NCBI GenBank assembly: GCA_027037535.1
Contig: JALVZQ010000004.1
Location: forward strand, 1 to 64,000
DNA from: Acidilobaceae archaeon
Lineage (GTDB): Archaea > Thermoproteota > Thermoprotei_A > Sulfolobales > Acidilobaceae
Length of the DNA: 64,000 bases
Reading direction: 5' to 3'
The position numbers were made by a program, and so were the translations under genes. Shown in pieces: positions 4,771-20,563 of the stretch (positions are counted from its first letter, which is position 1; every line of letters starts with the position of its first letter). The notes below the pieces were generated by a model, which made no database searches, was not told the origin of the DNA, and saw only the letters and a program-made list of their open reading frames with translations.

Positions 4771-5483
4771 GAGACTTGGTGGAGCATGCTGTCATCGTAG
4801 AGAGGGTTGAGAGAACCTATGTTTCGAGGGGCAGGGTAGTCGAGGCTGTAAAGGACGCTACTTTCCGCGTGGCTACCGGGTCCTTTGCCGCCCTGTACGG
4901 CCCAAGCGGCTCTGGGAAGTCGACGATCCTCAACATTATAGCCGGCTTCGATAGGCCAAGTAGGGGGAGAGTCGTGGTTTTTGGAGTCGAGCTGGGCAGT
5001 CTCTCCTGGAGGGGGCTCGTGAGGCTGAGGAGGCAGCTCATAGGATATGCTATGCAGGCCAACCTCGTGCTCCCAAGGTCCACTGCCTACTACAACATAG
5101 CCCTCCCACTGCTCATACGGGGATTAGACGAGAGTGAGATAGATGACAGGGTCCGGAGGGCTGCTAGGGACCTCCGGATAGACCACGTCCTGGATAGGCC
5201 TGCCTACACGCTCAGCGGCGGAGAGCTGAGACGCCTCGTCGTTGCTAGGGCTCTTGTCGTGAGACCAAAGCTGTTGCTGCTCGACGAGCCAACAAGCAAT
5301 CTCGACAGTGAGACGGCAGAGCTCGTATGGGAGACAGTAAAACGGTGGGCGAGGAATGCGGGCTCAACAATAATAGCAGCAACTCATGATACAACGGCAC
5401 AGAAGTACGCAAGTAAGATAATACACGCACGCGACGGCATAATAAGGTCTGACATGCAAGCCCCTCACAATGTGGGGACGTAG
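4767..5483 (+). CDS. ABC transporter ATPase, LolD/MacB type
   Basis: A 238-aa nucleotide-binding subunit. Walker A GPSGSGKST is at about 45-53, the Q-loop is near YAMQAN, the signature is LSGGELRR, Walker B is LLLLDEPTSNLD and the switch histidine is in AATHD. The LDEPTSNLD form and the short length are typical of the LolD/MacB/FtsE group that works with FtsX-type permeases. The ATG overlaps the stop of the permease gene (ATGA), implying one mRNA and stoichiometric synthesis. Confidence 0.93.
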   Translation: MRDLVEHAVIVERVERTYVSRGRVVEAVKDATFRVATGSFAALYGPSGSGKSTILNIIAGFDRPSRGRVVVFGVELGSLSWRGLVRLRRQLIGYAMQANLVLPRSTAYYNIALPLLIRGLDESEIDDRVRRAARDLRIDHVLDRPAYTLSGGELRRLVVARALVVRPKLLLLDEPTSNLDSETAELVWETVKRWARNAGSTIIAATHDTTAQKYASKIIHARDGIIRSDMQAPHNVGT

Positions 5484-5654
5484 ACAGGAAGCTAGAGGGG
5501 CCGCCCTGAGACACTAATATTCAGCCTCTGAAATATATTGCTATTAGACTCGATATACTATATTTGAGGGTCTCGATACCGTTAGTGATTGCTGTATTAG
5601 CTAGCTTGCCGCTTAATTATCGCTTTGATTAATAATTGTTTGGTGGTGTCTAGT

Positions 5655-5716
5655 GGCGGGGACTACCGGAATTTCTAGCCCGCGAGCCTCCGGCTCCTCG
5701 ACTGAGGCAATAAATA
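5655..5716 (+). repeat. GC-rich structured intergenic element, copy 2
   Basis: The order is GGCGGGGACTACCGGAAT, then TCTAGCCC, then GAGCCTCCGGCTC (a perfect 5-bp hairpin with a TCC loop), then GCAATAAATA. The same order is found on the minus strand at 366-426. It precedes the leader and antitoxin at 5725-6083. The 170 nt before it (5484-5654) show nothing I can identify. Confidence 0.5.
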
Positions 5717-5724
5717 GATATATT

Positions 5725-5861
5725 GTACAAGGTGTATGGTGAAATGCAACATACATTCACACATTATGATTAGCTATGATACTCACAGTTGGTAATAGTA
5801 ATATATCTGGGGGTAAAGGCTTAGAGGCTCCAAGCCCCTCTATACGTAATAGGGATCAAGA
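5725..5861 (+). repeat. Conserved DUF104-antitoxin leader, copy 4
   Basis: It contains GGTGAAATGCAACATAC, TTATGATTAGCTATGATAC, GGTAAAGGCTTAGAGGCTCC, AAGCCCCTCTATACG and AATAGGGATCAAGA, ending directly at the TTG start. It is the most complete copy. The AAGGCTTA block about 40 nt before the start is the candidate TATA-like promoter element, and TAGAGG...CCTCTA could fold around the transcript start. Confidence 0.7.
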
Positions 5862-6083
5862 TTGTCCAAGGTAGTAAGGGCGAGATACGAGAAAGGCGTA
5901 CTCAAACCCCTAGAACCCTTAGAGTTTAGAGAAGGGGAAGAAGTGGAGATCATTATCAAGCACAGAATGTTCGAAGAGAAGGATTATCGGGAGCTAGTGG
6001 ATTACCTTGCAAGTTTCCCTAAGGGTAAGGGAGAACTACTGGATATGGTGCAGGAGCTGTATCTTGAGGAGGCTCTTCGTTGA
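5862..6083 (+). CDS. DUF104 (AF2212-like) antitoxin
   Basis: A 73-aa antitoxin, SKVVRARYEKGVLKPLEPL then an EGEEVEIIIK strand and an acidic helical C-terminus. The start is TTG at the same position as the paralogue at 1543. Its last 20 nt overlap the PIN gene at 6064. The protein is longer at the C-terminus than the 1346-1543 paralogue, which should set toxin specificity. Confidence 0.88.
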   Translation: MSKVVRARYEKGVLKPLEPLEFREGEEVEIIIKHRMFEEKDYRELVDYLASFPKGKGELLDMVQELYLEEALR

Positions 6084-6372
6084 CGCCAATATACTTATCC
6101 GTATAATATTCAACAAAGAGTTCGGCCTCCTCGAACATCTAATAGGAACAGAGCCCTACACTTCGACCCACATCCTGGAAGAGGCAGCATATAAGATCAT
6201 AGCTCTCTCCGTAATCGAATCAGAGGGACCTGTGAGCGTCTATAAGGTCAGGAAGCTATTCGAGAAGGGAGTTGCAGAAAGGATCATTATAGCTAGACTG
6301 GCTGCACTCGATATTCATGTTAAGTGGGCTCTCAAGTATGGTGTTAAGAGAGAGATATCGCATAGATCGTGA
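6064..6372 (+). CDS. PIN-domain toxin, apparently C-terminally truncated
   Basis: From TTG 6064 the protein starts MRRLFVDANILIRIIF and carries the first aspartate and the glutamate of ILEEAAYKI. At 102 residues it lacks the usual C-terminal third with the LLPNDA-type and DEDF-type acidic residues, ending KYGVKREISHRS. The sequence after the stop shows no clear continuation in another frame. It is either a short PIN variant or a truncated, inactive toxin kept with its antitoxin. Confidence 0.65.
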   Translation: MRRLFVDANILIRIIFNKEFGLLEHLIGTEPYTSTHILEEAAYKIIALSVIESEGPVSVYKVRKLFEKGVAERIIIARLAALDIHVKWALKYGVKREISHRS

Positions 6373-6531
6373 ATAAGCTTATTGATTATCCATTGAATGT
6401 CAGTCACCACGAGCTGCTTGCGTCGTTCCGAGAGTTAAACCAGTCATCCACGGGTCTCCAGAATGTTATGAAGGAGAGAACTTTTTAGGAGGCGGATTCC
6501 ATTTATGCTCTTTCGTCACTGTCTCTCTGGC

Positions 6532-6849
6532 TTACTCTTTCTTCAGCATCTTGCGCAACTCCTCTATTCTCGCCTCTATGCTCCTTAGCTCTTCGAGTAG
6601 CTCTCTCTTGTATTCCTCTAGGGTTTTGAGCTCATCTTCAGGCTTTACTGGTGCCACAGGATACGGTGGAATTGGAGGAGTTGGCGGTGGCGGTGTTTGA
6701 GGTAACTGGCCTGTCTGGCTGAGGTAGTTCCAATACCAGTACCAGCACCATCCCCTACCGTAGTACCAGCCTGGCCTCTGCCAGGGTGGAAGGTAGCTCC
6801 AGGGGCCTTTGCCAGGCCAGGGCCCCCATCCCCATCTCCACTGTGCCAT
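6532..6849 (-). CDS. Trp/Gly/Pro-rich small protein with coiled-coil tail (DUF5320-like)
   Basis: A 105-aa protein from ATG 6849, chosen because GGTGAT lies 4 nt upstream. Residues 1-45 are extremely rich in W, G, P and Y (WRWGWGPWPGKGPW and YYGRGWCWYWYWNY). A proline linker PPPPTPPIPPYP follows, then a charged coiled coil (EYKRELLEELRSIEARIEEL). This layout is that of small proteins often found next to DUF134 genes, and the upstream neighbour here is DUF134. Function unknown. Confidence 0.75.
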   Translation of the reverse strand: MAQWRWGWGPWPGKGPWSYLPPWQRPGWYYGRGWCWYWYWNYLSQTGQLPQTPPPPTPPIPPYPVAPVKPEDELKTLEEYKRELLEELRSIEARIEELRKMLKKE

Positions 6850-6917
6850 GTCTATCACCATTTATGTGCTATTGCACAAAAATAGTTATAAGCTTATCTA
6901 TAGATTCTATATAGATT

Positions 6918-7283
6918 CTACCCATCGATTCCTTCCCCCGAGAACGGTAGCGTAGGCATAGATCCCGAGATTATGAAGGGCCTTCCAGAGATAAGTGCGC
7001 CCACAAGCTTCCTCCGCCCGGAGTCGAGGAGCCTCCAAAGAGTCCCCCTCGACACTCCCAGCTTCTCAGCCGCTTCATCCTGGGTGAGCCCCTCATAGTA
7101 CACGAGCCAGAGAGCCATAAACTCGTCAGGCGCCAATACTATAGGCTCCTTCTCCATAGGGGGTGCCTCACTTACAGGGAAGGGCACATATACAAGGCCC
7201 CAGCCAGACGGCGGCTCTATAAGTCTTCTCGGTTTAGGAGGTCTCCCTCTACGCCGCCGTCTCCATCTCCTTCCCTCGCGCAT
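6918..7283 (-). CDS. DUF134 / UPF0251 family DNA-binding protein
   Basis: A 121-aa protein with a very basic N-terminus (RRWRRRRRGRPPKPR). A helix-turn-helix at about 65-95 follows (GLTQDEAAEKLGVSRGTLWRLLDSGRRKL), the DUF134 core related to sigma-70 region 4 folds. The RGRPPKPR motif is family-typical. GGTGA sits 5 nt before the ATG. It is probably co-transcribed with the Trp-rich gene 68 nt downstream, which it may regulate. Confidence 0.85.
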   Translation of the reverse strand: MREGRRWRRRRRGRPPKPRRLIEPPSGWGLVYVPFPVSEAPPMEKEPIVLAPDEFMALWLVYYEGLTQDEAAEKLGVSRGTLWRLLDSGRRKLVGALISGRPFIISGSMPTLPFSGEGIDG

Positions 7284-7639
7284 ATTTCACCATCTCAGTA
7301 TTTGACCTATAGTAAATGTATCCTTCTCTATGATGATGCTCGGCCAGGAAATTGATACACGGTTAAGACTATTAATTGTATAAGTTTAAGATGCTGGATA
7401 GCTAGAGTCCAGGTGATTGGGTTTTTAGTGCTTCTGGTAAGGTCTTTGGTCTCGTTTCATTGTGCTGTAGGATGCTATGAGTTAGGTCTTTTCTCTTAAT
7501 CAAGAGAGTTAGCTTTACTGTGAGAATACTCATGGTATTGTTTAGTAGGCGTTGATTGTATAGCTTTGTGGGTTAATACAGGATTATTACGATAAATTTA
7601 AATTTACCAATATAAACTTCTAGTTACTAGGGATATGGA
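7284..7639. other. Intergenic region without a recognised feature
   Basis: About 350 nt between divergent genes. The last 60 nt are AT-rich (ATAAATTTAAATTTACC near 7592-7608) and probably hold the TATA element of the CPBP protease gene. I see no structured RNA or repeat here. Confidence 0.5.
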
Positions 7640-8308
7640 TTGATAATTACTATCTTAAAAGCTATCGGTATATGGGCTGTAATCTTTATACCAGGAGGAA
7701 TTGCGGGAAGTATAGCGTCAAGGATTATTCCAGTGGAGAGAAAGATTCTATCGGGAGTGACGTCACAGTTAATGTTTATAACCATGAGCCTGGTTATCAC
7801 TCTATTTTTCACCGACGGGTTAAGGTTATCTGGCTTACAGTTTTCGTCGTGTTGTGTTATAAGAGCAGTCCTGTATTCCGGGGCATTAGCAATTACTATA
7901 ACGTTAACATTAATAGTTGTTCAAAAAGAGCATAATTATGAGCCACCGTTCCTACCTAGTAGCTTGATTGAGGCAGTTATCGTTGCCTTCCTTCTAGCAC
8001 CTTTCAGTGAGGAGCTCATGTATAGGGGTGTCGTAGAGGGCTACCTATTATCAAATGCCTCTCAGTTCATCGCCATTCTGATTCCAGCAATCCTTTTCTC
8101 CCTAATGCACATTATACCATTCCGCGATGCACCGAAACCCGTCTTTGCCACGCTTTTGATTGGCGCATTCCTACTTGGACTCGTTGCAGGCTACTACAGG
8201 GCTCTGAGCAACTCCATAATCCCAGCCTTCGCATCCCACTCAATCATGAACGTAATAGGCTTCCTTCAATACTACTGGGAAAAGCGAATTTATACGGGTA
8301 AACTTTAA
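7640..8308 (+). CDS. CPBP-family (CAAX-like) intramembrane metalloprotease
   Basis: A 222-aa membrane protein. The three conserved motifs of the Abi/CPBP family are visible: EELMYRG (glutamates plus arginine), a histidine in FSLMHII, and a histidine in FASHSIMN. The motifs lie in predicted membrane helices, consistent with a zinc peptidase acting in the membrane. The TTG start is the first available. It is followed 37 nt later by a small membrane protein and an ArsR-type regulator, likely one operon. CPBP proteins often occur near peptide export or immunity genes, and an ABC-2 exporter lies next door. Confidence 0.88.
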   Translation: MIITILKAIGIWAVIFIPGGIAGSIASRIIPVERKILSGVTSQLMFITMSLVITLFFTDGLRLSGLQFSSCCVIRAVLYSGALAITITLTLIVVQKEHNYEPPFLPSSLIEAVIVAFLLAPFSEELMYRGVVEGYLLSNASQFIAILIPAILFSLMHIIPFRDAPKPVFATLLIGAFLLGLVAGYYRALSNSIIPAFASHSIMNVIGFLQYYWEKRIYTGKL

Positions 8309-8345
8309 ATTACCGGGACAAGACACAAGTGCATGGGGAAGGCTA

Positions 8346-8570
8346 ATGAGTGTAGACGTGCTCGTAAGCGTTCTCTATGTTGTTATACTCTTATTTGCCT
8401 CAGTATTTGCAGTCTACGTATTCAATACTTTATCGCTCAAAGAGAAGCTAAGGTTAAACGAGGAGGAAGTTAAAAAACTAGAGAAAACTATGAAAGAACT
8501 ACATGAAGAAATCAATCAGTTAAAAAAGGAGATAATTGGCCTCAAGAAGGAACTATCAGGAGAGCCCTAA
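8346..8570 (+). CDS. Small membrane-anchored coiled-coil protein
   Basis: A 74-aa protein: one membrane helix at residues 5-28 (VSVLYVVILLFASVFAVYVF), then a continuous charged coiled coil (KLEKTMKELHEEINQLKKEI). No family recognised. It sits between the CPBP protease and an ArsR-type regulator and could be a substrate or scaffold of the protease; that is inference. Confidence 0.7.
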   Translation: MSVDVLVSVLYVVILLFASVFAVYVFNTLSLKEKLRLNEEEVKKLEKTMKELHEEINQLKKEIIGLKKELSGEP

Positions 8571-8592
8571 GGAGGAGTGGGTGCTCAAATAG

Positions 8593-8898
8593 ATGGAAAG
8601 TAGAGAAGATCCCCTTGTTAACTTATCCAAGATACTCTCTATACTTGCACATCCAACCAGACTAAAGATACTAGCATTATGCGCGGTTAAGGAGAGAACA
8701 GCGAGGGAGTTAAGAGAGGAGCTAGGCATCTCCAAACCACTTCTAATAGCCCACCTTAAACAATTAATTAACTACGGCTTCATCGAGTCTAGAGCCGAAA
8801 TAGACGAAGAGAGATTTATTATAAAAAAGTATTATAAAACTAAAAAATTCGAGATAAAAATAAACGATGAAATACTTGCAAGTCTTCTTAGAAAATAG
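8593..8898 (+). CDS. ArsR/HTH_20-type winged-helix regulator
   Basis: A 101-aa DNA-binding protein. LSILAHPTRLKILALCAVKE is the standard N-terminus of ArsR-like regulators, followed by the recognition helix in ELGISKPLLIAHLKQL and a wing (EERFIIKKYYKTKKF). No metal-binding cysteine pair is seen, so another signal is likely. GGAGGAG lies upstream. It is probably the regulator of this operon and possibly of the convergent ABC-2 exporter. Confidence 0.88.
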   Translation: MESREDPLVNLSKILSILAHPTRLKILALCAVKERTARELREELGISKPLLIAHLKQLINYGFIESRAEIDEERFIIKKYYKTKKFEIKINDEILASLLRK

Positions 8899-8939
8899 GC
8901 TAAGTACATGCTCTTGAGTCGGTTAAATAAATTAGATAT

Positions 8940-9698
8940 TCATTCCTCGTACCATTTTATTCCACGAAGCCCGAAAAAGAGGTAAATACTGGTTAGCAAC
9001 ACTAAGAACACTGTGTGTTTTACAATATCATACTGCCCCACGCCAAGAAGACTTCTAGCTGCCAGCGCAGCATGCGTAGTTGGGAGAAATTGGCTCAATA
9101 TCCTTATTGGTGTAGGCATCATCTCTATTGGATAATAAGCTGGCGTAAACATAGCTATGATAAATGAGACTATATTTGTTAATGCATATGTTTGAGGGAG
9201 GCTACTACTTCTTGTACCTATAACTGCACCTATTCCAATCAAGCCTAAACTCGCAATTAATAATAGCGATAAAAGCTGAGGAAATACACGTAGAACCCTG
9301 TCTAATATATTCCATGCTATCCCTCCTGAAAACACCATGATTATTACGTTAATTAAACTCGATATAATAAAGACGGTTGATACCCCCAGTATATAAGCTC
9401 CAGGTGACACTGGGTAGGATGCAATAAGTTCTAGTCTTTTAAGCAATCTATCCTGCCCCAAATTTTGTCCAATACCATTGATAATTGATAGTGATAGGGA
9501 TAGTACTATTACTCCCACAAGCATGTTGGTCGCTGCATCGACAGTTATCATGCCCTTAAAGGCTAATGATATAAGATAGGTAAAGCCTAAGGGTAAAATT
9601 ATGGCTATCACAATATATGGAATAATAGCTGTTCTCAAACTCATAAAATTTATAATTAAAATAATATATGTATCAGTTAATACCTTTTTTACTCTCAT
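8940..9698 (-). CDS. ABC-2 type transporter permease
   Basis: A 252-aa protein with six predicted membrane segments and the ABC-2 pattern: N-terminal helix MSLRTAIIPYIVIAIILP, amphipathic RLELIASYPVSPGAY, and FTPAYYPIEMMPTPIRILSQFLPTTHA before the last segments. I place the start at ATG 9698, inside the 3' end of the ATPase gene (26-nt overlap). It forms an exporter with 9673-10617. Substrate unknown. Confidence 0.85.
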   Translation of the reverse strand: MRVKKVLTDTYIILIINFMSLRTAIIPYIVIAIILPLGFTYLISLAFKGMITVDAATNMLVGVIVLSLSLSIINGIGQNLGQDRLLKRLELIASYPVSPGAYILGVSTVFIISSLINVIIMVFSGGIAWNILDRVLRVFPQLLSLLLIASLGLIGIGAVIGTRSSSLPQTYALTNIVSFIIAMFTPAYYPIEMMPTPIRILSQFLPTTHAALAARSLLGVGQYDIVKHTVFLVLLTSIYLFFGLRGIKWYEE

Positions 9699-10617
9699 TT
9701 TCTGACAACTCCAAGAAGACATCTTCAAGACTAGGCATTCTTAATTCAAATTCAATTCGACGACTAATCAAGAAATCGATTAACTTCTCGACCTCATCGT
9801 CTTCACCGGGCACTATTATATCTATAAACGATCCTGAATATTTACTTATTTTATAGAAACCCTTTATACGATCTAATAATTTTGTTATTTCTTCTCCATA
9901 ATATGCATCTATTCTTATTTTTACGTAATTTCCAACTAATTTTTTAATATCCCTGATCGATCCTAAAGCTACGATACGTCCATTGTTTAAAAACAAAATT
10001 CTATCACTTAGTCTTTCAGCTTCATCCATAAAATGAGTGGCTAGTAGAATAGTTGTACCATCCTTTTTATATTCACGAATAATAGACCATACATGTCTTC
10101 TACCAACAGGATCGAGATGAGTGGTAGGTTCGTCTAAGTAAACTATTTTACTTGAGCCTAAGAATGCTTGAGCTACGATAATTCTCCTCTGTAATCCTTT
10201 AGATAAAGATCCGACATATTGATCTCGATATTTTTTAAGATCAAATTTAGATATTAGCGAATTAGTCTCTTTTCTAGCTTTGTCAGAAGAAAGACCCTTT
10301 AGTCTTCCAAAATAATAAAGATGCTCAAAAACAGTTAGGTGTTCAATAATTGCAGACTCCTGAGGACACAGAGAGATGTATTCTTTTACAGCATTGGGGT
10401 TTCTAATAACGTCGACTCCTGAAACAATTATAGAGCCAGATGTAGGCTTTAACAATCCTGCAAGTTGCTTAATAAGTGTAGTTTTACCGGCACCGTTAGG
10501 GCCAAGAATACTAAAAATCTCGCCTTCTCGGATATTAAAGGAGATATTAACGTTAGCTTTGACGCCATTCTTGTAGATTTTCGTTAAATTTTTAACAGTT
10601 ATTATAAAATTATTCAT
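9673..10617 (-). CDS. ABC-2 type exporter ATPase (DrrA/CcmA-like)
   Basis: A 314-aa ATPase. Walker A GPNGAGKTT is at 39-47, the Q-loop is in CPQES, the signature is the variant LSKGLQRR, Walker B is IVYLDEPTTHLDP and the switch is in LATHFMDEAERL. A C-terminal regulatory domain of about 90 residues follows (to LEDVFLELSENE), as in DrrA-like exporters. GGTGA precedes the ATG by 7 nt. Upstream lies a frameshifted antitoxin, so the operon may have inherited that promoter region. Confidence 0.92.
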   Translation of the reverse strand: MNNFIITVKNLTKIYKNGVKANVNISFNIREGEIFSILGPNGAGKTTLIKQLAGLLKPTSGSIIVSGVDVIRNPNAVKEYISLCPQESAIIEHLTVFEHLYYFGRLKGLSSDKARKETNSLISKFDLKKYRDQYVGSLSKGLQRRIIVAQAFLGSSKIVYLDEPTTHLDPVGRRHVWSIIREYKKDGTTILLATHFMDEAERLSDRILFLNNGRIVALGSIRDIKKLVGNYVKIRIDAYYGEEITKLLDRIKGFYKISKYSGSFIDIIVPGEDDEVEKLIDFLISRRIEFELRMPSLEDVFLELSENESKKGIN

Positions 10618-10620
10618 TAT

Positions 10621-10850
10621 ATTTCACCAACTTCAAACGATACAATCCTAATACCGTTGTCCAACGCTCACGGGCTTCCCTAAGAGTCTCATCGACGTCC
10701 CCCGCTAGCCTCTACGCTTACCTTATCCACTAGCTCCGGGAACTCCTCAGGCAGAACTTGAATCCTAACCTCCTCACCTTCTCGGAACTCTAAAGGCTCC
10801 AAGGACTTAAGCACACCCTTCCCATACCTAACACGGGTATCTTTAGACAA
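10621..10850 (-). pseudogene. DUF104 antitoxin with frameshift
   Basis: From TTG 10850 the minus strand encodes SKDTRVRYGKGVLKSLEPLE, EGEEVRIQVLPEEFPELVDK, then EASGGRR and a stop at 10689. In the other frame, after a run of five G (forward 10700-10704), the expected acidic C-terminus appears (DVDETLREARERW). One inserted G therefore explains the truncation. No toxin gene follows; the ABC-2 operon begins instead. Confidence 0.65.
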
Positions 10851-10960
10851 CCTTTCCCCCTTCATTAATATAACTAATAGGGACTCTAAGCCTCAACGCT
10901 TTGTGTTTAATTCCTGTCAACTATGAGTATATGAGCAAGATAGAATAAATTTATTATCTT
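10851..10960 (-). repeat. Conserved DUF104-antitoxin leader, copy 5 (degenerate)
   Basis: The minus strand retains ATACTCATAGTTGA and TTGAGGCTTAGAG at positions equivalent to the other leaders; the 3' part has changed to GAAGGGGGAAAGG. It precedes the frameshifted antitoxin. The next 100 nt to the gene at 11064 show no further feature. Confidence 0.4.
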
Positions 10961-11063
10961 AAGTTATTAAGATCTTTTAACTGCTAAGCAGGATCATTTA
11001 CTTGGAGAGTCAAGATATGGTGCCTTAAGTTCTCTATGACATAATATTTACGGTGGTTTAGTA

Positions 11064-11825
11064 TTGTGTTCTACACCTATCGATGACTCGGAGTGTTTAA
11101 CTAAATGGCTACGGGGACTAGGCAATCTTGGGATCTTTTGGGCTAAGAAAATTAGAGGGATAGAAGTGATCACACAAAATCCTTTAACTCTCCTTATTGA
11201 GTGGCAGCATTCAAAGAGATCTAAGAGCGCATTTCTCTCCCTATGCCACAGGATTAGCAGAATCTGTTTAGATAGTCTACGAGGCCTTGTAGGGGATAAA
11301 GACACCGATCTTTTCATTATCACTCTTTCAGAGCTAATCCAAGATCTCTATGACAGATGGAGTAAGATCTTCATCTATGATGTCGATGGTCCCTTTCTAG
11401 TGCCGAACCGAGGAGTCTCGGTTGAGATCTATACTCCCGAGCATGTAAGCGATCATATCGCCTCTACTATTGAGACTGTCCAGAGGAGTAGCTGGGGCTT
11501 CTACAAGCCACCTCCCAAAGGAGACTATGTGCTAGTAGCTAAAATATCCGGTGATAAACCAATAGGTTCAGCATACTATAATCCGATTAGTAGTAATATT
11601 GACTACGGTATACATGTCTCTAAACCATACTGGAAGCGTAGAATCGGCACAAGACTACTTGTGGAGACAACTAGGCTAGCCATGAGCTTGGGCCACAGAT
11701 GGATTAGCGTAGTAAGAGTCATGCGAGGAATAAAGCCAACTCTAAGCGATAGGAGAGCGATAGCATTCTACCGAGCAAACAATCCTAAACAAGAACTAAA
11801 CGTTTACAGATTAGCCATTAGATAG
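11064..11825 (+). CDS. GNAT-family N-acetyltransferase with N-terminal extension
   Basis: A 253-aa protein. Residues about 130-250 have the GNAT fold pattern: a strand with IGSAYY, then KRRIGTRLLVETTRLAMSLGH, where RRIGTR is the acetyl-CoA pyrophosphate loop, and SDRRAIAFYRANN as the late helix. The first about 125 residues match nothing I recognise and contain a helical Cys/Arg-rich part. The start codon is uncertain (TTG 11064 used). Substrate unknown. Confidence 0.7.
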   Translation: MCSTPIDDSECLTKWLRGLGNLGIFWAKKIRGIEVITQNPLTLLIEWQHSKRSKSAFLSLCHRISRICLDSLRGLVGDKDTDLFIITLSELIQDLYDRWSKIFIYDVDGPFLVPNRGVSVEIYTPEHVSDHIASTIETVQRSSWGFYKPPPKGDYVLVAKISGDKPIGSAYYNPISSNIDYGIHVSKPYWKRRIGTRLLVETTRLAMSLGHRWISVVRVMRGIKPTLSDRRAIAFYRANNPKQELNVYRLAIR

Positions 11826-12039
11826 AGCCCTAGAAAACATTCTACTTAAAGAAAACCCCCTTGGGTAAGAGCGGGACAAGAACGTCAATAAATTATATCA
11901 TCATGTTTAATTAGGAACTTCTTATTTGTTCCTAGCCTAAGACTATACTAATAATTATATTAGCAAGTTATTGGATTAACTCAAATCTAACACAATGCAA
12001 TCATTAAAACTCCGAATTCTAGTATTAAAGCAAGTTTTC

Positions 12040-12846
12040 TTAGCTCCTTGCCATTATTACGGTTTCTACTAAAGCTAGAAGACCATCGTTAGATTCTATT
12101 AAAACTTCTAGCTCTTTTTCATTTAATGCATTATAAAAGAATTCCTCAATATTTTTATAACATAGATAGGCTGCTGCGACTAATGCCATTTTCTTGTGAG
12201 AGTATCTACTGTCTATTATTTTATTGAATAGTTTAGGGCAGTTTGTTTGTATTTCTCAGATAATCTCTTGATAGGGATAGAGAACATAGTCTTCTATTGC
12301 GTGTTTAGTGATAAAGTCTAAACCCTGTTCTACTCCTTGAACTAATAAAATCAGCCTAACATTTTCAGGTTTTTCCAGTACATATATGCGGTGATGTCTT
12401 CCTTGCCGCTCATTCTTCTTAATCTTCATACATCTACGAGAGTGCAGTGAGTCCTCCAGTGAATCTAATCGCTCCTTGAAGTCTCTATCCTCAGCATCCT
12501 CGGCAACTACCAAATAGTTGATACTAGGAGAAGAGAGTCCTGACTGATATTCAAGAACCTCACAAGTTTTATCTACCACGCTTCTCTCAGTAGGCCAAAT
12601 AATCAAATATACTGCTTTTTCTTCATTGTTGAAAATTACCTTAAGCACTGAAGATCTCTTTATCGGAGATCTATCCCCAATTTGGAAAGCCCGAGCTATC
12701 ACACTGTTTTTCTCTTCCCTATAGTTCGTTTGATCTAAATCAATAATTTCTAGACCTTGGCTTTCAAAAGTTTTCTTCAAGAATACCTTATAAAACGCTC
12801 TATCATCCTTTCCTGGGACTATAATTAATATTAATTTACTCGACAT
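12040..12846 (-). pseudogene. TOPRIM-like (DUF3226/OLD-type) protein interrupted by in-frame TGA
   Basis: From ATG 12846 (GGTGG upstream) 196 codons run to a TGA at 12256-12258. The same frame then continues for 71 more sense codons with good coding character (KLFNKIIDSRYSHKKMALVA, ALNEKELEVLIESNDG) to TAA at 12040. The N-terminal IIVPGKDDRAFYKVFL and the middle VVAEDAEDRDFKERL match the glutamate and DxD pattern of TOPRIM-type OLD/DUF3226 nuclease partners. It lies directly downstream of an AAA ATPase. Either a nonsense mutation removed the C-terminal quarter, or the 196-aa form is what is made. Confidence 0.65.
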
Positions 12847-12871
12847 ACAAGCCACCAAATTTATAGTACAG

Positions 12872-14194
12872 TTATTTTCTAAGATCTAAGCCCAGACTCT
12901 CAATACTCTGTAGACTAACCTTGCCACTCCACTTACCTTTTGCTTTTATAAGGCCATTCTTAGTTAATTCTATTCTCTCAACTAGTGTATTGTCAAGAAT
13001 ATTGTCTTCTTTAGCTTTGTCTAATAATTTCCTTAAAAATTCTATACTTTGAGTAGCTATTACGACTTGGTTTCCACTAGCCACTAGGCGAGTTATGAAA
13101 TCGGCTACCACCGGTAATCCATCTGGGTGAACGAAGGCTTCTGGTGTGTCCAGGAGAAATAGTACTGGAGGCTTAGATATAGCATAGAGGAGGCTTATAA
13201 ATACCGCTACACGTTGGCCATCGCTAAGATTGTAGACTGATATTCTTTTACCCTCGTGTGATTTTACGTGAAGTACTCTTCCGATAAGTTCATAGCCTTC
13301 TATCCACTTAATGTATTTCTTTAAAAGGTTTATTGCTTCTTTCTCGTTAGGTAATCCTTCACGAACTGAAGTGTAGTACAGTCCTTCGAATATACCATAC
13401 CAGTAAATGAATCCGGGATGAAACACCATTACGTTTGGTGCCTCTATTGTTTGAGAATCTTGTTTCTTTATAACGATAGTAGTACTAGGAATTCTCAGAA
13501 GGATTGCCTTCATTATCTTGTCATCTACTAAAGTATATATAAATCTCATTTTAGGAGATAAATAAATAAATCTTTTGATTATATTCGAAGTTTCCAGTAG
13601 GTTAATTATTTCTTCATCCTCTCCACTCTCTATTCTAAGTAGATTAGTTCCTCGTAAATGGTTACTCACTGCCAAGTCAATACGTTTTCCTAAAATATTG
13701 GTTACAATTTCGTTTAGAATACGGTAGTTTATTTTTTTATGTTTATTTGATGTAGAGCCTAATTCTGAGAGTATATCACTGTAAGTGTCAAGATCTCTTT
13801 TTATTTCGTCAAGTATAATAACTGTATTATGATCAATAGAAGACAACATTTCTTCTATGTAATTTCTGGCAAAAAAGAGTAACGGATCCGGCTCTAAAAA
13901 CGTGCTTACTACACTTGTATTATCTAGGAACACGACGCCCGCAAGTGATGAAGGTACCCTCCTTCTTGGACGAAGCGTTGCAGTAAGTGCTAGCCCCAAA
14001 GCACTAGGCAAGGGTTTCAGCATACTTGAGAGTATATAGCCTAAAGACTCAAGTATGGTAGTTTTTCCTGATGCGTTTGGACCGATAAGAACCGTTAACT
14101 TGTCGAGCTCTATGTCGATCTTTAGATAGTCGGTTTTTATTCCGGGAGGTGCGTAAGGGATTACAGCCTTGATTCTCTTTATCGTTTTGGACAC
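12872..14194 (-). CDS. AAA_15/AAA_21 ABC-type ATPase, OLD/PARIS-like
   Basis: A 440-aa ATPase. Walker A GPNASGKTT is at 38-46, the signature-like NLSDGQRVAVF near 335, Walker B VLFLLDTPEAFVHPDG near 360 and the switch ATQSIEFLRKLL near 392. Between the halves lies a long helical/insert region (about 100-310) without zinc hook, as in overcoming-lysogeny-defect and AbiEii/AAA_15 ATPases. The GTG start has GGTGAT 8 nt upstream. The next gene downstream is TOPRIM-like, the usual partner, so this is a candidate two-gene defence or nucleic-acid sensing system. Confidence 0.85.
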   Translation of the reverse strand: MSKTIKRIKAVIPYAPPGIKTDYLKIDIELDKLTVLIGPNASGKTTILESLGYILSSMLKPLPSALGLALTATLRPRRRVPSSLAGVVFLDNTSVVSTFLEPDPLLFFARNYIEEMLSSIDHNTVIILDEIKRDLDTYSDILSELGSTSNKHKKINYRILNEIVTNILGKRIDLAVSNHLRGTNLLRIESGEDEEIINLLETSNIIKRFIYLSPKMRFIYTLVDDKIMKAILLRIPSTTIVIKKQDSQTIEAPNVMVFHPGFIYWYGIFEGLYYTSVREGLPNEKEAINLLKKYIKWIEGYELIGRVLHVKSHEGKRISVYNLSDGQRVAVFISLLYAISKPPVLFLLDTPEAFVHPDGLPVVADFITRLVASGNQVVIATQSIEFLRKLLDKAKEDNILDNTLVERIELTKNGLIKAKGKWSGKVSLQSIESLGLDLRK

Positions 14195-14644
14195 AATATG
14201 GCATCACCCTTTCTTTAGTCTTATAGCTAAGTTACTTTACTCTAATACGTATTTTCTATTTTCAGTAGTCGTTATCGGTTAATTCTAGGCAAGAAGTATA
14301 TATTTATTCCTCATTTGAGTAGAGTAACACAATATAATTAACAATCCTAGGCTGCTATAACTGTATTATCGCAGAATTATCCTTTTGAACTCCACGAAGA
14401 TTCCTAAACGACTATTATCTTAGAGTTCAGACCCTAAGTGTAAAAGAGTAAAGGATTATTGGTAGTAATTAGTTGTGTAAAGAAAATATCTAATTATTTT
14501 AAATAATCTGCTCGTGCACAGGGTCTTTGTGCAAAGGATAGAGGAGGCTCCGAGATACAAGTAAAGAAACTAGTATGTGTTGTGCTCGGACGTATTGCCA
14601 GTGTTCTATGGATATGTATCATGTGGAGGAGCAAGGTTGTCGGG
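14195..14644. other. Intergenic region without a recognised feature
   Basis: About 450 AT-rich nt between the ATPase start and the end of the surface protein gene. Plus-strand frames here continue into the antisense of the surface protein and show no ribosome binding site or domain. Confidence 0.5.
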
Positions 14645-16321
14645 CTATCGTTGGATGCCTAGTTTCGGGATTCCTAGTTTGACCATTATGATTATGACTG
14701 CGACGATAGTAGCTATAACTGTACCAGCTATTAGGGATCTATTACTTGTGTTCGTGCTTGTGGTTGTATTCTGGGAGGACTCGTTTGCTATTGTTATGGT
14801 TAGGGTTGCGGCGTCGTGGAGTCCTGCTTCGTCCTCGACTTGTACTATTATTTCGTGTGTTCCTGGTGAGAGTTGGAGTGTGTATGTGTCTGTTGATGGT
14901 GGTAGGTTTATGGTTTGTTGTCCGTCTATTGTCAGCGTTATTTTTGTTATTTTAGAGGTTCCGTTCTCGACTGTCCACTTTATGGATACTGTTTCGTTTT
15001 CCAGGGTGACTCCTTGTTGTGGTGATAGTATTGTTATTTTTGGAGGAGCTATTGGGGATGCCTTGGAGACTAGTGTTATGTATAGTCCTCCTCCATAGAA
15101 GGGGTATGGTGTAAGCATTTTGACCGTGTAGTTCTCCTCGTATATCTTATATGTTCCCTTAGGATACCATATGTCTAGGTCTCTGTCCCATGCCAGCGGC
15201 ATTAGATCCCTCATGGTTATGCCCATTCTCTGCAGGTCTTCGGGGTTGAGGTGGAAGTATATGTTTAAAACACCGGGGCGTGTAGTGCTATTTGATACTA
15301 TTAGGATTGGTCCCATTATGGTAGTGTAGGGTGGAGAGGTACCGGGATTTCTCGTACTGGTATAGACCCATATCTTCGTGGGTGCAGTTAGCTGAGGCGT
15401 GGTTATTGTGATGTTTGGTTCTCCTATCGATACTGTCATGTCTTGTTTGTCTAATACCTTATAAATGGTGGGTGTGCCTGGATCATCGACATAGAAAACG
15501 GAGACGCTTTTGAAGACAACGTTGATAGGGTCAAAGTCAATCGCGTAGGAAAAGTTATGGGTTCCAGGCTCGAGCTCAGAGGTCTCCACGTGGGGAGCCT
15601 CGTACGTCCCGCTAATCCAGCCTCCTCCATAGCCTCCCCCACTATAACTTAAGAGTTCTCGATTGTCCAGGGAAATCGTGACAGTCCAGTTTAATGTCCC
15701 ATTATAGCTACAGGGGGTATATGTAGACGTTTGATCGCCTAAGTATTCAGGACACGGCCAGTAGTTTACCGGGAAGCCTCCGGCGAAATAGAAGCTTTCT
15801 CCCCATACGTAATGGCTCCCGTTCCTCGGAATAGCTATGATAACTGGGGGGTTTGTGCGATCTGGCCGGTGAAGGAGGAAGTATACTGTAGTTTCACTCC
15901 CATGTGTATCCGCTGCTATGACCGTTATATTTGCAGTTTCAGCTACGTGTCCTAGTATCTCACCGTAGATAGAGAAGATGATGTTTCCCTCGAGGCCGAC
16001 CTGGTAGAGTGTAGTGTTTCCATACTCCATCGGTGTTAAGGGTACCATGTATAGCGGGGGGACACCTACGGAGATGTTGGCTAATCCGTCTGGATCATAA
16101 GCCTTTACCACCACGTCTATAATATCTGTACCCCATACGTCCCAGCATGGATAGATTAGCTTGAGAAGAGGCGGATTATTATCATCATTATTTTCTTCTG
16201 CTTCTACTAGTATAATGCCTGTTTTAGACTTATGGGTATTCGAGGTAAAGGTCATAGGTATTAGAATTGATAAAATTATTAATGATAATAGTATGAAGCT
16301 TGCAGGGAATCTCACGATCAT
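14645..16321 (-). CDS. Anchored, N-glycosylated surface protein (paralogue of 25719-27491)
   Basis: A 558-aa protein from ATG 16321, chosen for AAGGAGGTAG just upstream. A signal peptide at residues 1-28 (FPASFILLSLIILSILIP) and a C-terminal membrane anchor (GTVIATIVAVIIIMVKLG) frame an outside part rich in NxT/NxS sequons. Repeating beta-sandwich character is visible: YDPDGLANISVGVP early and an Ig/cadherin-like module KITILSPQQGVTLENETVSI late, before a Thr/Ser/Asn-rich stalk. The region WDRDLDIWYPKGTYKI is shared with the paralogue. Probably a cell-envelope component; enzymatic motifs are not seen. The 314 nt upstream of it (16322-16635) hold only promoters. Confidence 0.82.
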   Translation of the reverse strand: MIVRFPASFILLSLIILSILIPMTFTSNTHKSKTGIILVEAEENNDDNNPPLLKLIYPCWDVWGTDIIDVVVKAYDPDGLANISVGVPPLYMVPLTPMEYGNTTLYQVGLEGNIIFSIYGEILGHVAETANITVIAADTHGSETTVYFLLHRPDRTNPPVIIAIPRNGSHYVWGESFYFAGGFPVNYWPCPEYLGDQTSTYTPCSYNGTLNWTVTISLDNRELLSYSGGGYGGGWISGTYEAPHVETSELEPGTHNFSYAIDFDPINVVFKSVSVFYVDDPGTPTIYKVLDKQDMTVSIGEPNITITTPQLTAPTKIWVYTSTRNPGTSPPYTTIMGPILIVSNSTTRPGVLNIYFHLNPEDLQRMGITMRDLMPLAWDRDLDIWYPKGTYKIYEENYTVKMLTPYPFYGGGLYITLVSKASPIAPPKITILSPQQGVTLENETVSIKWTVENGTSKITKITLTIDGQQTINLPPSTDTYTLQLSPGTHEIIVQVEDEAGLHDAATLTITIANESSQNTTTSTNTSNRSLIAGTVIATIVAVIIIMVKLGIPKLGIQR

Positions 16322-16635
16322 TCTACCTCCTTCATGGATTCTAATCAAATCATTGATCAAAGGTTAAAGGAATCGAGTCTGATCCACGACGACAAACCTG
16401 GCTAATTATATATTTCAAAGACTCGCTCTAGTGATGGACTAGCAGAAACCTGATAATCTCGAGGACCTTATTGGCTTTTGATTTATAACTCCTAGGCTTG
16501 GCCCAAACAAGATATAAGGTAAATGAGCTATTTATTAGTTATTTCTAACTTTGGTATGCAGTCGAGCACTCTATTATTACAACGTTTTAATTTGGAAGAG
16601 TAGCGGTATACAAATAGTAGGGGTCGACGGTATCT

Positions 16636-17106
16636 ATGAATAAACGAGCTTTCCGGATAGATAAAATTAGAGAGGTAGATTTAGACAGAGTTATTGATAT
16701 CTTACGTAGTTTGCCTGAATGGTTCACTCCTAAAGCAGTAACCGAGGTTAGAATTGCTATTAGACGGTCACCGGGGTTTGTAGTGAGGGTTGGAGATGTT
16801 GTTCGTGGATTTGCCTTGTTAGAGGAGAAAGAGTGTTGTATCGAGATAGCATGGCTTGCAGTGGAGAAGGGTTTCCATGGTAAAGGAATAGGAACCATGC
16901 TTGTCAAAGCTGCGGAGGCCTATGCTTGCAGTAAGGGCAAGCCTGTGCTGACTGTAAAAACTTATGGAGGAATGGATTATGAACCGTACTTGGAGACTCT
17001 GGCCTTCTATAAGAGGAGAGGGTTTAAACAATATGAATTAATAGAAGATTATAGGCCTTTCAGTGGACAACCGGCTATTATACTAGTAAAAAATCTAGAT
17101 TGCTAA
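16636..17106 (+). CDS. GNAT-family N-acetyltransferase
   Basis: A 156-aa single-domain acetyltransferase. The acetyl-CoA binding strand and loop are IAWLAVEKGFHGKGIGTMLV (Q/R-x-x-G-x-G form GKGIGT near residues 78-83), followed by a helix AAEAYACSKG and LAFYKRRGFKQYELIEDYR, the usual final motif. The length matches the RimI-like group. The substrate cannot be told from sequence. It stands alone between two minus-strand genes. Confidence 0.87.
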   Translation: MNKRAFRIDKIREVDLDRVIDILRSLPEWFTPKAVTEVRIAIRRSPGFVVRVGDVVRGFALLEEKECCIEIAWLAVEKGFHGKGIGTMLVKAAEAYACSKGKPVLTVKTYGGMDYEPYLETLAFYKRRGFKQYELIEDYRPFSGQPAIILVKNLDC

Positions 17107-17190
17107 AATATAATTATAATAGTTACGAGAACCTTTATAGATAATAGCAATAGTATACGATTTAAGATTCCAATATTTTTATAAGTGGAT

Positions 17191-18342
17191 TTATTTTAAT
17201 GAGTTTATTAAGTCGTAGACGTCTTGGGAGAATTTTTCGAAGCTGAAACGTTTAGTGCTTTCTGCTATAATTTTTCTATAGGAACAATCTCTATCTAATG
17301 CTTCATATATTGCATTGGCTGCTTCTTCGTAGTTTTGGAATCCGTATCCATATTTACCGTATTCAACTATATCGCTCCACTGTCCACCGTCTTTATAAAC
17401 TACAGGAATGTTGTAGGCTGCCATTGCTTCTACTATGCTTATTCCGAAGTGTTCGTTTTTTCGTGTGCTTAGATATACGCTTGATTGTTTAAGCAAATTT
17501 ATTTTTTCGGAGTCGGTTATATTTGTGAGGAACTTAACATTATCTAAACCAAGCTTTTTCGTTATTTTTATTAATTTTAGATAATAATTACGACTTTTCC
17601 TCGAGTACACGCCTCCAGCCAAGATAAATCTTACATCCGGCATATGTTTCGCAACATATAATGCTGTTTCCAGTTCTTTCTCCGGAGAGAACCTACCGAT
17701 AGATATAACCTGTCTCTCCTTACCAGAACAGGAATTATTCTTCATAGCCTCTTCAATTAAACTAAGATCTATAGGCGGATAAATAATAATTGATGGCATC
17801 CCAAAATGTTTCTGAATTAAACTCTGTGAATACTTAGATAAGGTAACAATCCTACTATGGCTTATCGATTTTTTATATTCCTTAAACATTTTATCCCTTA
17901 TAAACGAGTATGGTTTAATATATAGATTCCATGGAAATCTACGATATTTTCCTATCTCCCTGTCCAAAAATAGTGTAGTGTAAAATATGTATATAATGTC
18001 TCCCGGAAACATTAACATATCTCCATTAGCGTTTATTATCAAATCGTATTCGTCTCTCAATTTCAGTTTGCTTATTCTCCAATTTTTGATTAACAATTTA
18101 TATGCGAAAAACAACGGTAATCTTAGATCTAATTCTCCAAAAAATTTACTTATAACAAATTCATTATCTGGCATAGTGTAGAATGCAGGCGTTATTTTCT
18201 TTATTAGGTCCCAGTTAATTTTCCTAAACGTATACAAATCAACGGTGTAGTGTTTTTTTAAAGTTTTAGCGAATGCCAGTGCAACTCGTTTTCCTCCGCC
18301 TGGAAAATCTATACTCTCTACTATTAACGCAAGTTTCTTCAC
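17191..18342 (-). CDS. GT4-family glycosyltransferase
   Basis: A 383-aa retaining glycosyltransferase from GTG 18342 (GGTGC upstream). The N-terminal Rossmann half has SIDFPGGGKRVALAFAKTL. The nucleotide-sugar half has ISIGRFSPEKELETALYVA near 230, NVKFLTNITDSEKINLLKQS, and the EX7E-type motif NEHFGISIVEAMAAYNIPVV. This is the GT4 pattern. It is divergent from the epimerase gene at 18424 by about 80 nt, and both belong to the surface-glycan locus. The sequence is AT-rich. Confidence 0.9.
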   Translation of the reverse strand: MKKLALIVESIDFPGGGKRVALAFAKTLKKHYTVDLYTFRKINWDLIKKITPAFYTMPDNEFVISKFFGELDLRLPLFFAYKLLIKNWRISKLKLRDEYDLIINANGDMLMFPGDIIYIFYTTLFLDREIGKYRRFPWNLYIKPYSFIRDKMFKEYKKSISHSRIVTLSKYSQSLIQKHFGMPSIIIYPPIDLSLIEEAMKNNSCSGKERQVISIGRFSPEKELETALYVAKHMPDVRFILAGGVYSRKSRNYYLKLIKITKKLGLDNVKFLTNITDSEKINLLKQSSVYLSTRKNEHFGISIVEAMAAYNIPVVYKDGGQWSDIVEYGKYGYGFQNYEEAANAIYEALDRDCSYRKIIAESTKRFSFEKFSQDVYDLINSLK

Positions 18343-18423
18343 AGCAATAGCACCAGGAGTGTTAAACATAATATGAGAAGGTTTTTATTTTATTTTTACA
18401 GTTTGTTCCAGTTGGTGAATGAT

Positions 18424-19659
18424 TTGAGTAAAAGGGTTCTTATCACGGGTATAAGTGGTTTTGTCGGCCCTCTTCTAGCAAAAAAACTGCTATCCCTGGG
18501 CTATGAGGTATATGGTTTCTATAAAAGACGAGCCGATGGGTATGTACCTATAAGATTACGCCTACTAGGTTTGCATAATTCAATAAAATTAATAGAAGGA
18601 GATTTATCAATTATGTCAAGTGTAATTGCATCGCTACGCGAAAGCGAGCCAGACGTCGTGTTTCATCTTGGAGCACAGAGCTTCGTGCCGCGGTCTTTCA
18701 AAGATCCAATAGAGACATATCATGTTAATACTATGGGCACCATATATTTATTAGAAGGAATCAGATTACTGGATCTCGACTCGAAGTTTATATTTGCTGG
18801 ATCTAGTGAAGAGTACGGATTACAGTTTATTGATAAAAGACACTATCAAGCTATGAAAGAAAAATATGGTATAATATATCCAGAACCCGAAAAACTACCA
18901 GAGTTGCCTATAGACGAAAACAATCCTCTCAGGCCTCTCAGCCCATATGCGACGTCTAAAGTTCATGGAGACTTTTCGACAAGAAACTATTATTATTCGT
19001 ATGGTATCAAAGGAATTGTTTCAAGAGCTTTTAACCATGAAGGACCAGGTCGGGGGCCAGAGTTTGTAACATCGGCGATAGTAATCCAAGTACTGGAGCT
19101 TATCTATGGAAAAAGAGACTATCTTAGAATCGGTAACGTTAATGCTTTCAGAGATTGGAGCCACGTAAACGATGTAATAGATGCATACATATTATTGTCG
19201 GAAAAAGGGAACCCTGGAGACGTATATGTGGTGGGTTCTAGGAGGACTAATAGTGTACTATCATTTATTCTATTAACACTGAAAGAGTTTGGTTATATAA
19301 CGGAGAAACTGGAGACTCTGGATGGTTCAATTACTGTTAAGGATCCCATTGAGGAGTGTGGTGAAAAGTTCTTTGGACTTAACTTCTTCAAAACTAAGGT
19401 AGATTGCATGTTGCTTCAGGGCGAATTAGAGTTTGAATTAAAGCATAAAGGAATAAAATTATATACCAGTAAGGGGACAGTAACAGTTAAGTTTGACCCC
19501 TCCAAGTTCAGGCCTTCAGATGTACCAATACTTCTAAGCAATCCGGAAAAGATTATGAGTTTAGGTTGGAGGATAAATCACAGTCTAAGCGATATTATTA
19601 AAGATCAAGTAGCATATTATAGTGATATGGAGCTTAGGAAAAGTATTAAGCCTAAATAA
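18424..19659 (+). CDS. NAD-dependent nucleotide-sugar epimerase/dehydratase (GDP-mannose 4,6-dehydratase-like)
   Basis: A 411-aa extended SDR from TTG 18424, preceded by GGTGAATGA. The NAD motif GISGFVG is at the N-terminus, VFHLGAQSFV follows, the catalytic pair is in SPYATSKVHGDF (YxxxK), and NHEGPGRGPEFVTSAI is characteristic of the GDP-mannose 4,6-dehydratase group. The C-terminus is about 70 residues longer than usual (ELEFELKHKGIKLYTSKGTV), with no domain I recognise. It probably makes a deoxy or epimerised sugar nucleotide for the neighbouring glycosyltransferase. Confidence 0.88.
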   Translation: MSKRVLITGISGFVGPLLAKKLLSLGYEVYGFYKRRADGYVPIRLRLLGLHNSIKLIEGDLSIMSSVIASLRESEPDVVFHLGAQSFVPRSFKDPIETYHVNTMGTIYLLEGIRLLDLDSKFIFAGSSEEYGLQFIDKRHYQAMKEKYGIIYPEPEKLPELPIDENNPLRPLSPYATSKVHGDFSTRNYYYSYGIKGIVSRAFNHEGPGRGPEFVTSAIVIQVLELIYGKRDYLRIGNVNAFRDWSHVNDVIDAYILLSEKGNPGDVYVVGSRRTNSVLSFILLTLKEFGYITEKLETLDGSITVKDPIEECGEKFFGLNFFKTKVDCMLLQGELEFELKHKGIKLYTSKGTVTVKFDPSKFRPSDVPILLSNPEKIMSLGWRINHSLSDIIKDQVAYYSDMELRKSIKPK

Positions 19660-19690
19660 AGTAAAGTAATATTATTAATTTATTATATAT

Positions 19691-20410
19691 CTAGGGATCT
19701 AAGTAATTAGAGATTTCTCTTAATACATCCGTATTCAAGAGATAATGTAGATCTTGTGGAGTGTCAACATCTACCCAGGGTATACCTGTTACATCTATAA
19801 CTTTGAAAATTCTTTTCTTAGCTATACAGTCTTTCCAATCATTGAACGAAAATGGAATTTTCAAACAGTCTCCGAGCGGCAATACGTGTCTTATATAATG
19901 TACTCCTGTATCCACAAAATTATACTCTAATAACTTCTTTCCTATCCTAATTACGTATTTTTCTGAATCTGCTAATATTAGGGTCGCTTCACCCGGATCA
20001 ACGTATATTGGCCTACTATCCCCTGCAATACAAAACGGATCCCGACATTCTCTTAACAGACGTTTAGGAATCATAGGGGGATATATGTGGTCGCCCACAC
20101 TGACTATGTATTCTCCTGGGCCCAAGACTTCTAGAGCATCTACGAGAGTATACCCGTTTCCAGCCCACCACCTCCAGGTCTCTATAATCTCTATATGGGG
20201 TGCATACGGGCAGGACCTGGAAATTGTAGCTATTTCATCAGCTTGTTGTTTTCTTGTCGCAATATATATCTCTCCTACTCCTGCTAGCGATAGGCTTGAG
20301 ATAGGATAACAAATTAAATTCACTCCTTTAATCTTAGTTTCTAGTTTATTTCTCCCGATAGTCTGAATAAGCCTTTCGCTCTTTCCAGCTGCTAGTACTA
20401 TGGCTTTCAA
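19691..20410 (-). CDS. Inositol-1-phosphate cytidylyltransferase-like nucleotidyltransferase
   Basis: A 239-aa enzyme from TTG 20410, five nt after GGTGA, so that the protein starts MKAIVLAAGKSERL, the nucleotidyltransferase P-loop. GNGYTLVDAL, VSVGDHIYPP, YVDPGEATLIL, NFVDTGVHYI and PWVDVDTPQDL match the motifs of the cytidylyltransferase domain of archaeal bifunctional IPCT-DIPPS enzymes. No membrane phosphatidyltransferase domain is fused. It should make a CDP-activated polyol (CDP-inositol is the best guess). The divergent gene at 20564 is a CDP-alcohol-using phosphotransferase, so the two probably work in sequence. Confidence 0.8.
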   Translation of the reverse strand: MKAIVLAAGKSERLIQTIGRNKLETKIKGVNLICYPISSLSLAGVGEIYIATRKQQADEIATISRSCPYAPHIEIIETWRWWAGNGYTLVDALEVLGPGEYIVSVGDHIYPPMIPKRLLRECRDPFCIAGDSRPIYVDPGEATLILADSEKYVIRIGKKLLEYNFVDTGVHYIRHVLPLGDCLKIPFSFNDWKDCIAKKRIFKVIDVTGIPWVDVDTPQDLHYLLNTDVLREISNYLDP

Positions 20411-20563
20411 TTGTTTCACCAGTGCGATCTTTATAATGAGAGATATCTCTAACTCGTCTGAATTATTAAACCATAGCAATTAATAATTTATCTCCATGCC
20501 TGATTGTCCCAAACAGTATATATTAATCGGGTTCTTGACATTATGTTGCCAATGGTGTAGAGG

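What the first reader, a model, noticed from the sequence alone, without database searches (positions are those of the whole stretch)
12040..14194. OLD/PARIS-like ATPase plus TOPRIM pair with an in-frame TGA in the effector
An AAA_15-type ATPase followed 25 nt later by a TOPRIM-like protein is the plan of OLD, Gabija-like and PARIS defence modules, whose effectors are toxic when triggered. Here a TGA divides the effector frame at 73% of its length, and the rest stays open and coding for 71 codons. A recent loss of a costly defence gene, or a shortened but still active effector, are both interesting.
Basis: partly seen in the sequence, partly recalled or inferred. Interest (0 to 1): 0.75.

Follow-up and report, generated by a model that had tools for sequence, protein, structure and literature searches.

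The report
Archaeal OLD-like pair, broken effector
A heat-loving archaeon carries a two-gene module related to known anti-virus systems (an ATPase plus a nuclease-like partner), and the partner gene has been cut short by a recent stop codon that none of its seven sequenced relatives has, so here the module is probably dead.

Summary
A 440-aa AAA_21/AAA_15 ATPase (12872-14194, -) is followed after 25 nt by a 268-codon frame that a TGA (12256-12258) splits at codon 197. Seven homologues from hydrothermal-vent archaea run through that position without a stop, to a shared C-terminal domain with an invariant HKK motif. No homologue ends at the TGA, and no tRNA-Sec reaches threshold in this genome. 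The tail still shows family conservation, so the loss looks recent; a base-call error cannot be excluded. Three other loci of the family are also damaged.

"TOPRIM" is supported only as a distant relationship. Pfam, PADLOC and Foldseek find no TOPRIM. Profile comparison (97%) and gene order link the effector to a sister set of archaeal ATPase + DUF3226 pairs, which keep EGxxD and usually DxD. The family of this window has VPGxxDR, with the catalytic Glu replaced by Pro, and DxE, in all eight members.

Best reading: an OLD/PARIS-like two-gene module, a probable accessory defence system, inactivated here by loss of its C-terminal helical domain. "Shortened but active" is unlikely. I found no paper naming DUF3226. 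New variant of a known kind, moderate interest; the conserved departure from the TOPRIM catalytic motif is more notable than the TGA.

The parts
12872..14194 (-). ABC/OLD-type ATPase, 440 aa, apparently intact
   Evidence: AAA_21 1.9e-16, AAA_15 1.5e-14; AriA 8.6e-18; AlphaFold pLDDT 85, Foldseek hits Rad50, SMC, PtuA, AriA, GajA; all invariant family residues kept
14060..14083 (-). Walker A GPNASGKT (residues 38-45)
   Evidence: alignment A3
13139..13156 (-). Walker B LLDTPE (residues 347-352); catalytic acidic position is Thr in all seven family members
   Evidence: alignment A3; sister ATPases have EDPE/EEPE
12256..12846 (-). effector gene as it stands: 196 codons plus TGA
   Evidence: homologues
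12811..12819 (-). VPG (residues 10-12), the first TOPRIM motif with Pro in place of the catalytic Glu; D15 lies four residues on
   Evidence: V10, P11, G12, D15 invariant in A2; sister family has CEGxxD; PH0156 VEGKTD aligned to VPGRDD, weak E 0.27
12490..12498 (-). DAE (D117, E119), counterpart of the TOPRIM DxD
   Evidence: invariant in A2; aligned to DADE of DUF3226 proteins by hhalign
12289..12306 (-). KHAIED (residues 181-186), start of the helical domain; counterpart of KHxLEDH in DUF3226 proteins
12256..12258 (-). in-frame TGA (codon 197), inside predicted helix 186-202
   Evidence: the homologues have K/S/G, never a stop or Cys, in this column
12043..12255 (-). untranslated remainder of the effector frame, 71 codons, five predicted helices
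   Evidence: aligned with all seven homologues; secondary structure
12190..12198 (-). HKK (residues 217-219), invariant, lost with the TGA; candidate equivalent of the catalytic lysine of BpOLD (K562)
   Evidence: invariant in A2; analogy to PMC6755086 is inference

Best explanation
This is a two-gene, OLD/PARIS-like ATPase + effector module of Thermoproteota whose effector has recently been inactivated in this genome by a nonsense codon. In the intact relatives the ATPase most likely assembles as an ABC-type sensor, holds the effector, and lets it act on nucleic acid when triggered by an invading element. Here the product stops inside the first helix of the C-terminal helical domain, loses the invariant HKK and Cys, and should be unstable or inactive, leaving an orphan ATPase. 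Shown: the TGA, the conserved continuation, intact homologues, the ATPase class, distant kinship to DUF3226 TOPRIM proteins, patchy and often broken distribution. Inferred: defence role, nucleic-acid cleavage, inactivity of the 196-aa form, recency.
For: Seven homologues with no stop at this position: six full length and one cut only by a contig end, 29-38% identical over the frame. The stop column holds K, S or G in them. Tail keeps 12 of 17 well-conserved columns, against 39 of 48 in the body, and has no further stop or frameshift. No tRNA-Sec above threshold; the best look-alikes are ordinary tRNAs, chiefly tRNA-Ser/Leu. TGA ends 11 of 47 window genes, so it is an ordinary stop here. Effector profile matches the sister ATPase+DUF3226 pairs: hhalign 97.4%, E 1.5e-11, against 0.1% for an unrelated control; all five sister proteins hit DUF3226, some also OLD-like_TOPRIM or Toprim. 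Accessory distribution: 11 of 214 genomes of the order gave any hit, several of them scraps or sister genes; window 3000-14745 has no DNA match to a comparable locus in the four congeners, only short repeats, while 14746-17112 is 91% identical in G003. Intact relatives lie beside a pAgo-like gene and a type II methyltransferase-like gene (L048) or beside further OLD-like ATPases (L047). Further broken loci: G117 (ATPase frameshift, effector cut at about 38 aa), G070 (ATPase split, 23 aa of effector left), G142 (remnant with TGA and TAG).
Against: No TOPRIM in Pfam, PADLOC or PDB/BFVD fold searches for the effector itself. Tail identity is only mildly reduced, so decay is not proven. No sibling genome shows the locus intact or empty: the G003 contig ends at window 14746. 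No viral contig carries the module. The one characterised archaeal OLD ATPase, Cran1, is not a defence protein (PMC12796447). Most intact loci other than L047 and L048 sit among ordinary genes.
Confidence: 0.62

Rival explanations
1. The TGA is a base-call or assembly error and the effector is intact, 268 aa.
For: The tail shows no second lesion and retains the conserved residues; no reads were available.
Against: Genome is 99.94% complete in 8 contigs. In the neighbouring 571-aa gene, gaps against the congener G003 are in threes. A single substitution to TGA is not the typical indel error. Three other loci of the family are broken as well.
Confidence: 0.17
2. The shortened 196-aa effector is still active, or serves as a regulator or dominant partner of the ATPase.
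For: Residues 1-196 keep the putative active-site positions D15, D117, E119, E185 and D186 and the family invariants of the body; the ATPase is intact.
Against: No homologue ends there. The cut falls inside helix 186-202 and removes five further helices with HKK and C229. Deletion of the helical domain impairs BpOLD (PMC6755086).
Confidence: 0.08
3. The TGA is decoded (selenocysteine, suppressor tRNA or programmed read-through) and full-length protein is made.
For: The frame is open and conserved beyond the stop.
Against: No tRNA-Sec above cut-off; the eight best candidates are ordinary tRNAs. No Cys in this column in relatives. TGA is an ordinary stop here. A full survey of tRNA anticodons was not possible.
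Confidence: 0.04
4. The pair is not a defence system but a housekeeping or chromosome-related OLD-type module, as Cran1 is in Saccharolobus.
For: The only studied archaeal OLD ATPase, Cran1, acts in the cell cycle and not in antiviral defence (PMC12796447).
Against: Cran1 is a single-chain, conserved, non-deletable gene with all active-site residues; this pair is rare, patchy, often broken and in places beside pAgo, methyltransferase and other OLD-like genes.
Confidence: 0.15

Closest known systems
Archaeal ATPase + DUF3226 (PF11536) two-gene pairs, e.g. G074 (L041), G066 (L080), G119 (L082), G468 (L083), G204 (L086)
   Same: Same order and strand, ATPase then small partner; homologous ATPases; partner aligned over the DxD-like and KHxxED motifs
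   Different: Sister partners keep the TOPRIM Glu (EGxxD) and usually DAD, and most ATPases keep an acidic Walker B residue; the family of this window has VPGxxDR, DAE, DTPE and a C-terminal HKK helical domain
PARIS (AriA + AriB; Class 4 OLD)
   Same: ATPase and TOPRIM-related protein in two adjacent genes; AriA is the best PADLOC and PDB profile match of the ATPase
   Different: No match of the effector to AriB or a DUF4435 model; the AriB catalytic Glu (E26) position is Pro here
OLD nucleases Class 1/2 (OLD, GajA) and Cran1 (Class 5)
   Same: ABC ATPase with a TOPRIM-type partner domain followed by a helical region
   Different: Two separate chains; no GajB helicase; Glu and second Asp of the metal-A site not conserved

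Membership tests
OLD family (any class) | ABC/OLD-type ATPase with Walker A, signature and Walker B | tested here: met
   AAA_21/AAA_15/AriA hits and fold; Walker A and LSDG present; Walker B is DTPE, without the usual second acidic residue
OLD family (any class) | TOPRIM domain with invariant Glu and DxD | tested here: not met
   Glu is Pro and DxD is DxE in all eight members; no TOPRIM model or fold hit
DUF3226 / OLD-like TOPRIM superfamily (distant kinship) | Profile similarity and same genomic partner | tested here: met
   hhalign 97.4%, E 1.5e-11; control 0.1%; Pfam itself does not call DUF3226 on the effector
PARIS (Class 4) | AriA-like ATPase gene next to AriB | tested here: not met
   ATPase resembles AriA; partner has no PADLOC AriB or Pfam DUF4435 hit
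Gabija (Class 2) | GajB UvrD-like helicase next to the ATPase-TOPRIM gene | tested here: not met
   Neighbours are an acetyltransferase-like gene, an ABC-2 transporter and a 571-aa secreted-type protein
Retron (Class 3) | Reverse transcriptase and ncRNA beside the ATPase-TOPRIM gene | tested here: inconclusive
   No RT among the neighbouring genes scanned; no Rfam search for a retron ncRNA was run
Any anti-virus defence system | Protection against, or toxicity triggered by, a virus | not testable with these tools
   needs experiment

The most novel reading that the evidence does not exclude
The intact members are a rare archaeal class of two-chain OLD-like systems that works without the canonical TOPRIM metal-A glutamate and DxD. 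They would use either a rebuilt active site (for example D15, D36/D38, D117/E119, E185/D186 and the HKK of the C-terminal domain) or a non-catalytic effector, with an ATPase that also lacks the usual second acidic Walker B residue.
Probability: 0.4. Interest if true: 0.6.

Novelty: new variant of a known kind. Interest (0 to 1): 0.38.

Why it matters
It defines a small archaeal family, with no Pfam, PADLOC or NCBIfam name for its effector, that extends the two-gene OLD/PARIS plan to hyperthermophiles and has replaced the residues usually taken to define TOPRIM catalysis. It also adds a case of repeated loss of such modules, as expected of a costly accessory gene. If an intact pair proves active, the TOPRIM active-site rules need widening.

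Tried and rejected
IMG/VR scans with the ATPase and with the effector alignment found no relative. Foldseek of the effector model against PDB and BFVD gave only weak hits, mostly glyoxalase-like and Ras-like (query TM-scores 0.14-0.23; 0.11-0.33), so TOPRIM was not confirmed by fold. Selenocysteine decoding: no tRNA-Sec above cut-off. Empty-site test in congeners failed because the G003 contig ends at window 14746. Window-specific decay of the tail: tail/body identity ratio 0.80 is the lowest of eight, but L049 and L051 are at 0.84-0.85, so this is not a clear signal. The H-loop Gln (TQS) was first taken as a loss of catalysis; dropped, because a sister pair also has TQS (L086). The weak AAA_15 hits elsewhere in the genome (C5) belong to a different ATPase + 194-aa partner pair. 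No paper held mentions DUF3226.

Full report
1. The observation. On the minus strand, 12872-14194 encodes a 440-aa ATPase. An ATG 25 nt after its stop opens a frame of 196 codons, TGA at 12256-12258, then 71 open codons to TAA at 12040-12042. The open tail has a chance of about 0.002 by base composition, and the other five frames are closed many times.

2. Is the TGA a natural end? No. ATPase and effector searches over the order and phylum, and a scan of 84,980 genome species, found the same two-gene unit in other Thermoproteota, all metagenome-assembled genomes: L044 (G097), L047 (G184), L048 (G153), L051 (G123), L049 and L050 (another family of the phylum), and L046 (G176, N-terminus cut by a contig end). 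All effectors run past the TGA position to a common C-terminus with invariant H217-K218-K219, C229, L249 and L256. The stop column holds K, S or G in them. That these genomes are from vents rests on my reading of the record titles.

3. Recent loss, error or recoding? The tail of this genome keeps 12 of 17 well-conserved columns, against 39 of 48 in the body; its tail/body identity ratio (0.80) is the lowest of eight but close to L049 and L051 (0.84, 0.85). So the tail has hardly decayed: the stop is recent, or false. Selenocysteine is unlikely: no tRNA-Sec above cut-off, best candidates are ordinary tRNAs, chiefly Ser and Leu; TGA ends 11 of 47 window genes. Against error: gaps between this genome and its congener G003 in the neighbouring coding gene are in multiples of three. 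Without reads this stays open; I put error at about 17%.

4. Other damaged loci. G117: frameshift in the ATPase and effector replaced after about 38 aa. G070 (a one-contig genome): ATPase in two frames with a stretch missing, 23 aa of the effector left. G142: effector remnant with a TGA and a TAG. C-terminal scraps in G153 contig 112 and, weakly, G138. Six complete pairs plus one contig-cut effector stand against four damaged loci including this one. A costly, dispensable module would look like this, but the numbers are small and several are metagenome bins.

5. What the parts are. The ATPase is clear: AAA_21, AAA_15, AriA, fold hits to Rad50, SMC, PtuA, AriA and GajA, best PDB profile hit AriA. 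The effector matches no family by itself, and its confident model (pLDDT 89) finds no TOPRIM in PDB. The link comes from a sister group: ATPase + DUF3226-like pairs in G074, G066, G119, G468, G137, G112 and G204. All five of the sister partners scanned hit DUF3226, two OLD-like_TOPRIM and one Toprim. Profile-profile comparison of the two effector sets gives 97.4%, E 1.5e-11, aligning DAED with DADE and QGxE..KHAIED with VNGx..KHxLEDH; the control gives 0.1%. hhalign does not align the first motif; PH0156 (2p62) aligns VEGKTD to VPGRDD at a weak E of 0.27.

6. The unusual point. In BpOLD the metal-A ligands are E400, D455 and D457; E404, T506 and E508 serve metal B; K562 of the helical domain assists; and deletion of the helical domain impairs cleavage and nicking (PMC6755086). 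By position (inference) E400 corresponds to P11, E404 to D15, D455/D457 to D117/E119, E508 to E185 or D186, and K562 perhaps to the HKK. So the Glu is gone and the second Asp is Glu in all eight members. Single E400A had no discernible effect in BpOLD, so loss of the Glu does not prove loss of activity. The ATPase has DTPE where the sisters have EDPE or EEPE.

7. Setting. Window 3000-14745 has no DNA match at E 1e-5 to a comparable locus in four congeneric genomes (only a short repeat matches, in G001), whereas 14746-17112 and 21727-22527 are about 90% identical in G003: the module lies in a strain-variable stretch, near PIN-type toxin genes. G003 is 86% complete, so absence there is not proof. 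The intact pair of L048 is adjacent to a pAgo-like gene and near a type II methyltransferase-like gene, and that of L047 lies among further OLD-like ATPases; the other intact loci are in ordinary surroundings.

8. Mechanism. By analogy with PARIS and Class 2 OLD: ATPase as sensor and holder, effector as the nucleic-acid-acting part. Only the architecture is shown. The truncated form most likely does nothing. Cran1, the one studied archaeal OLD protein, is not a defence protein (PMC12796447), so the defence role stays an inference.

9. Verdict. Confirmed observation; interpretation partly supported; new variant of a known kind; moderate interest.

Noticed in passing
window 171-424, 1465-1635, 2831-2881, 5646-5946, 10660-10893: Repeated stretches, also on contigs C2 and C3 of this genome, that look by eye like VapB/DUF104-type antitoxin genes or their relics; two PIN-domain genes lie at 897-1355 and 2090-2560.
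   Followed up: partly
window 17113-21726: Segment with glycosyltransferase and nucleotide-sugar genes that is absent from congener G003, whose contig C145 joins window 17112 directly to 21727.
   Followed up: partly
L067:3938-5750 (G000 contig C5 about 15938-17750): A second, different OLD-like ATPase followed by a 194-aa partner without family match in the same genome.
   Followed up: no
L048:3699-6509: 936-aa pAgo-like gene next to an intact module, with a type II methyltransferase-like gene beyond it.
   Followed up: no
L047:3403-4887 and 10965-12755: Two more OLD-like ATPases, each next to a small unassigned gene, within about 5 kb of an intact module.
   Followed up: no
L018:772-2552: A sister pair in G129 with a broken ATPase (74 and 198 aa pieces) and a partner with NG in place of EG.
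   Followed up: partly
window 14645-16360 and 25719-27491: Two related secreted-type proteins of 571 and 590 aa; the first has only a sub-threshold Glucodextran_B match.
   Followed up: no
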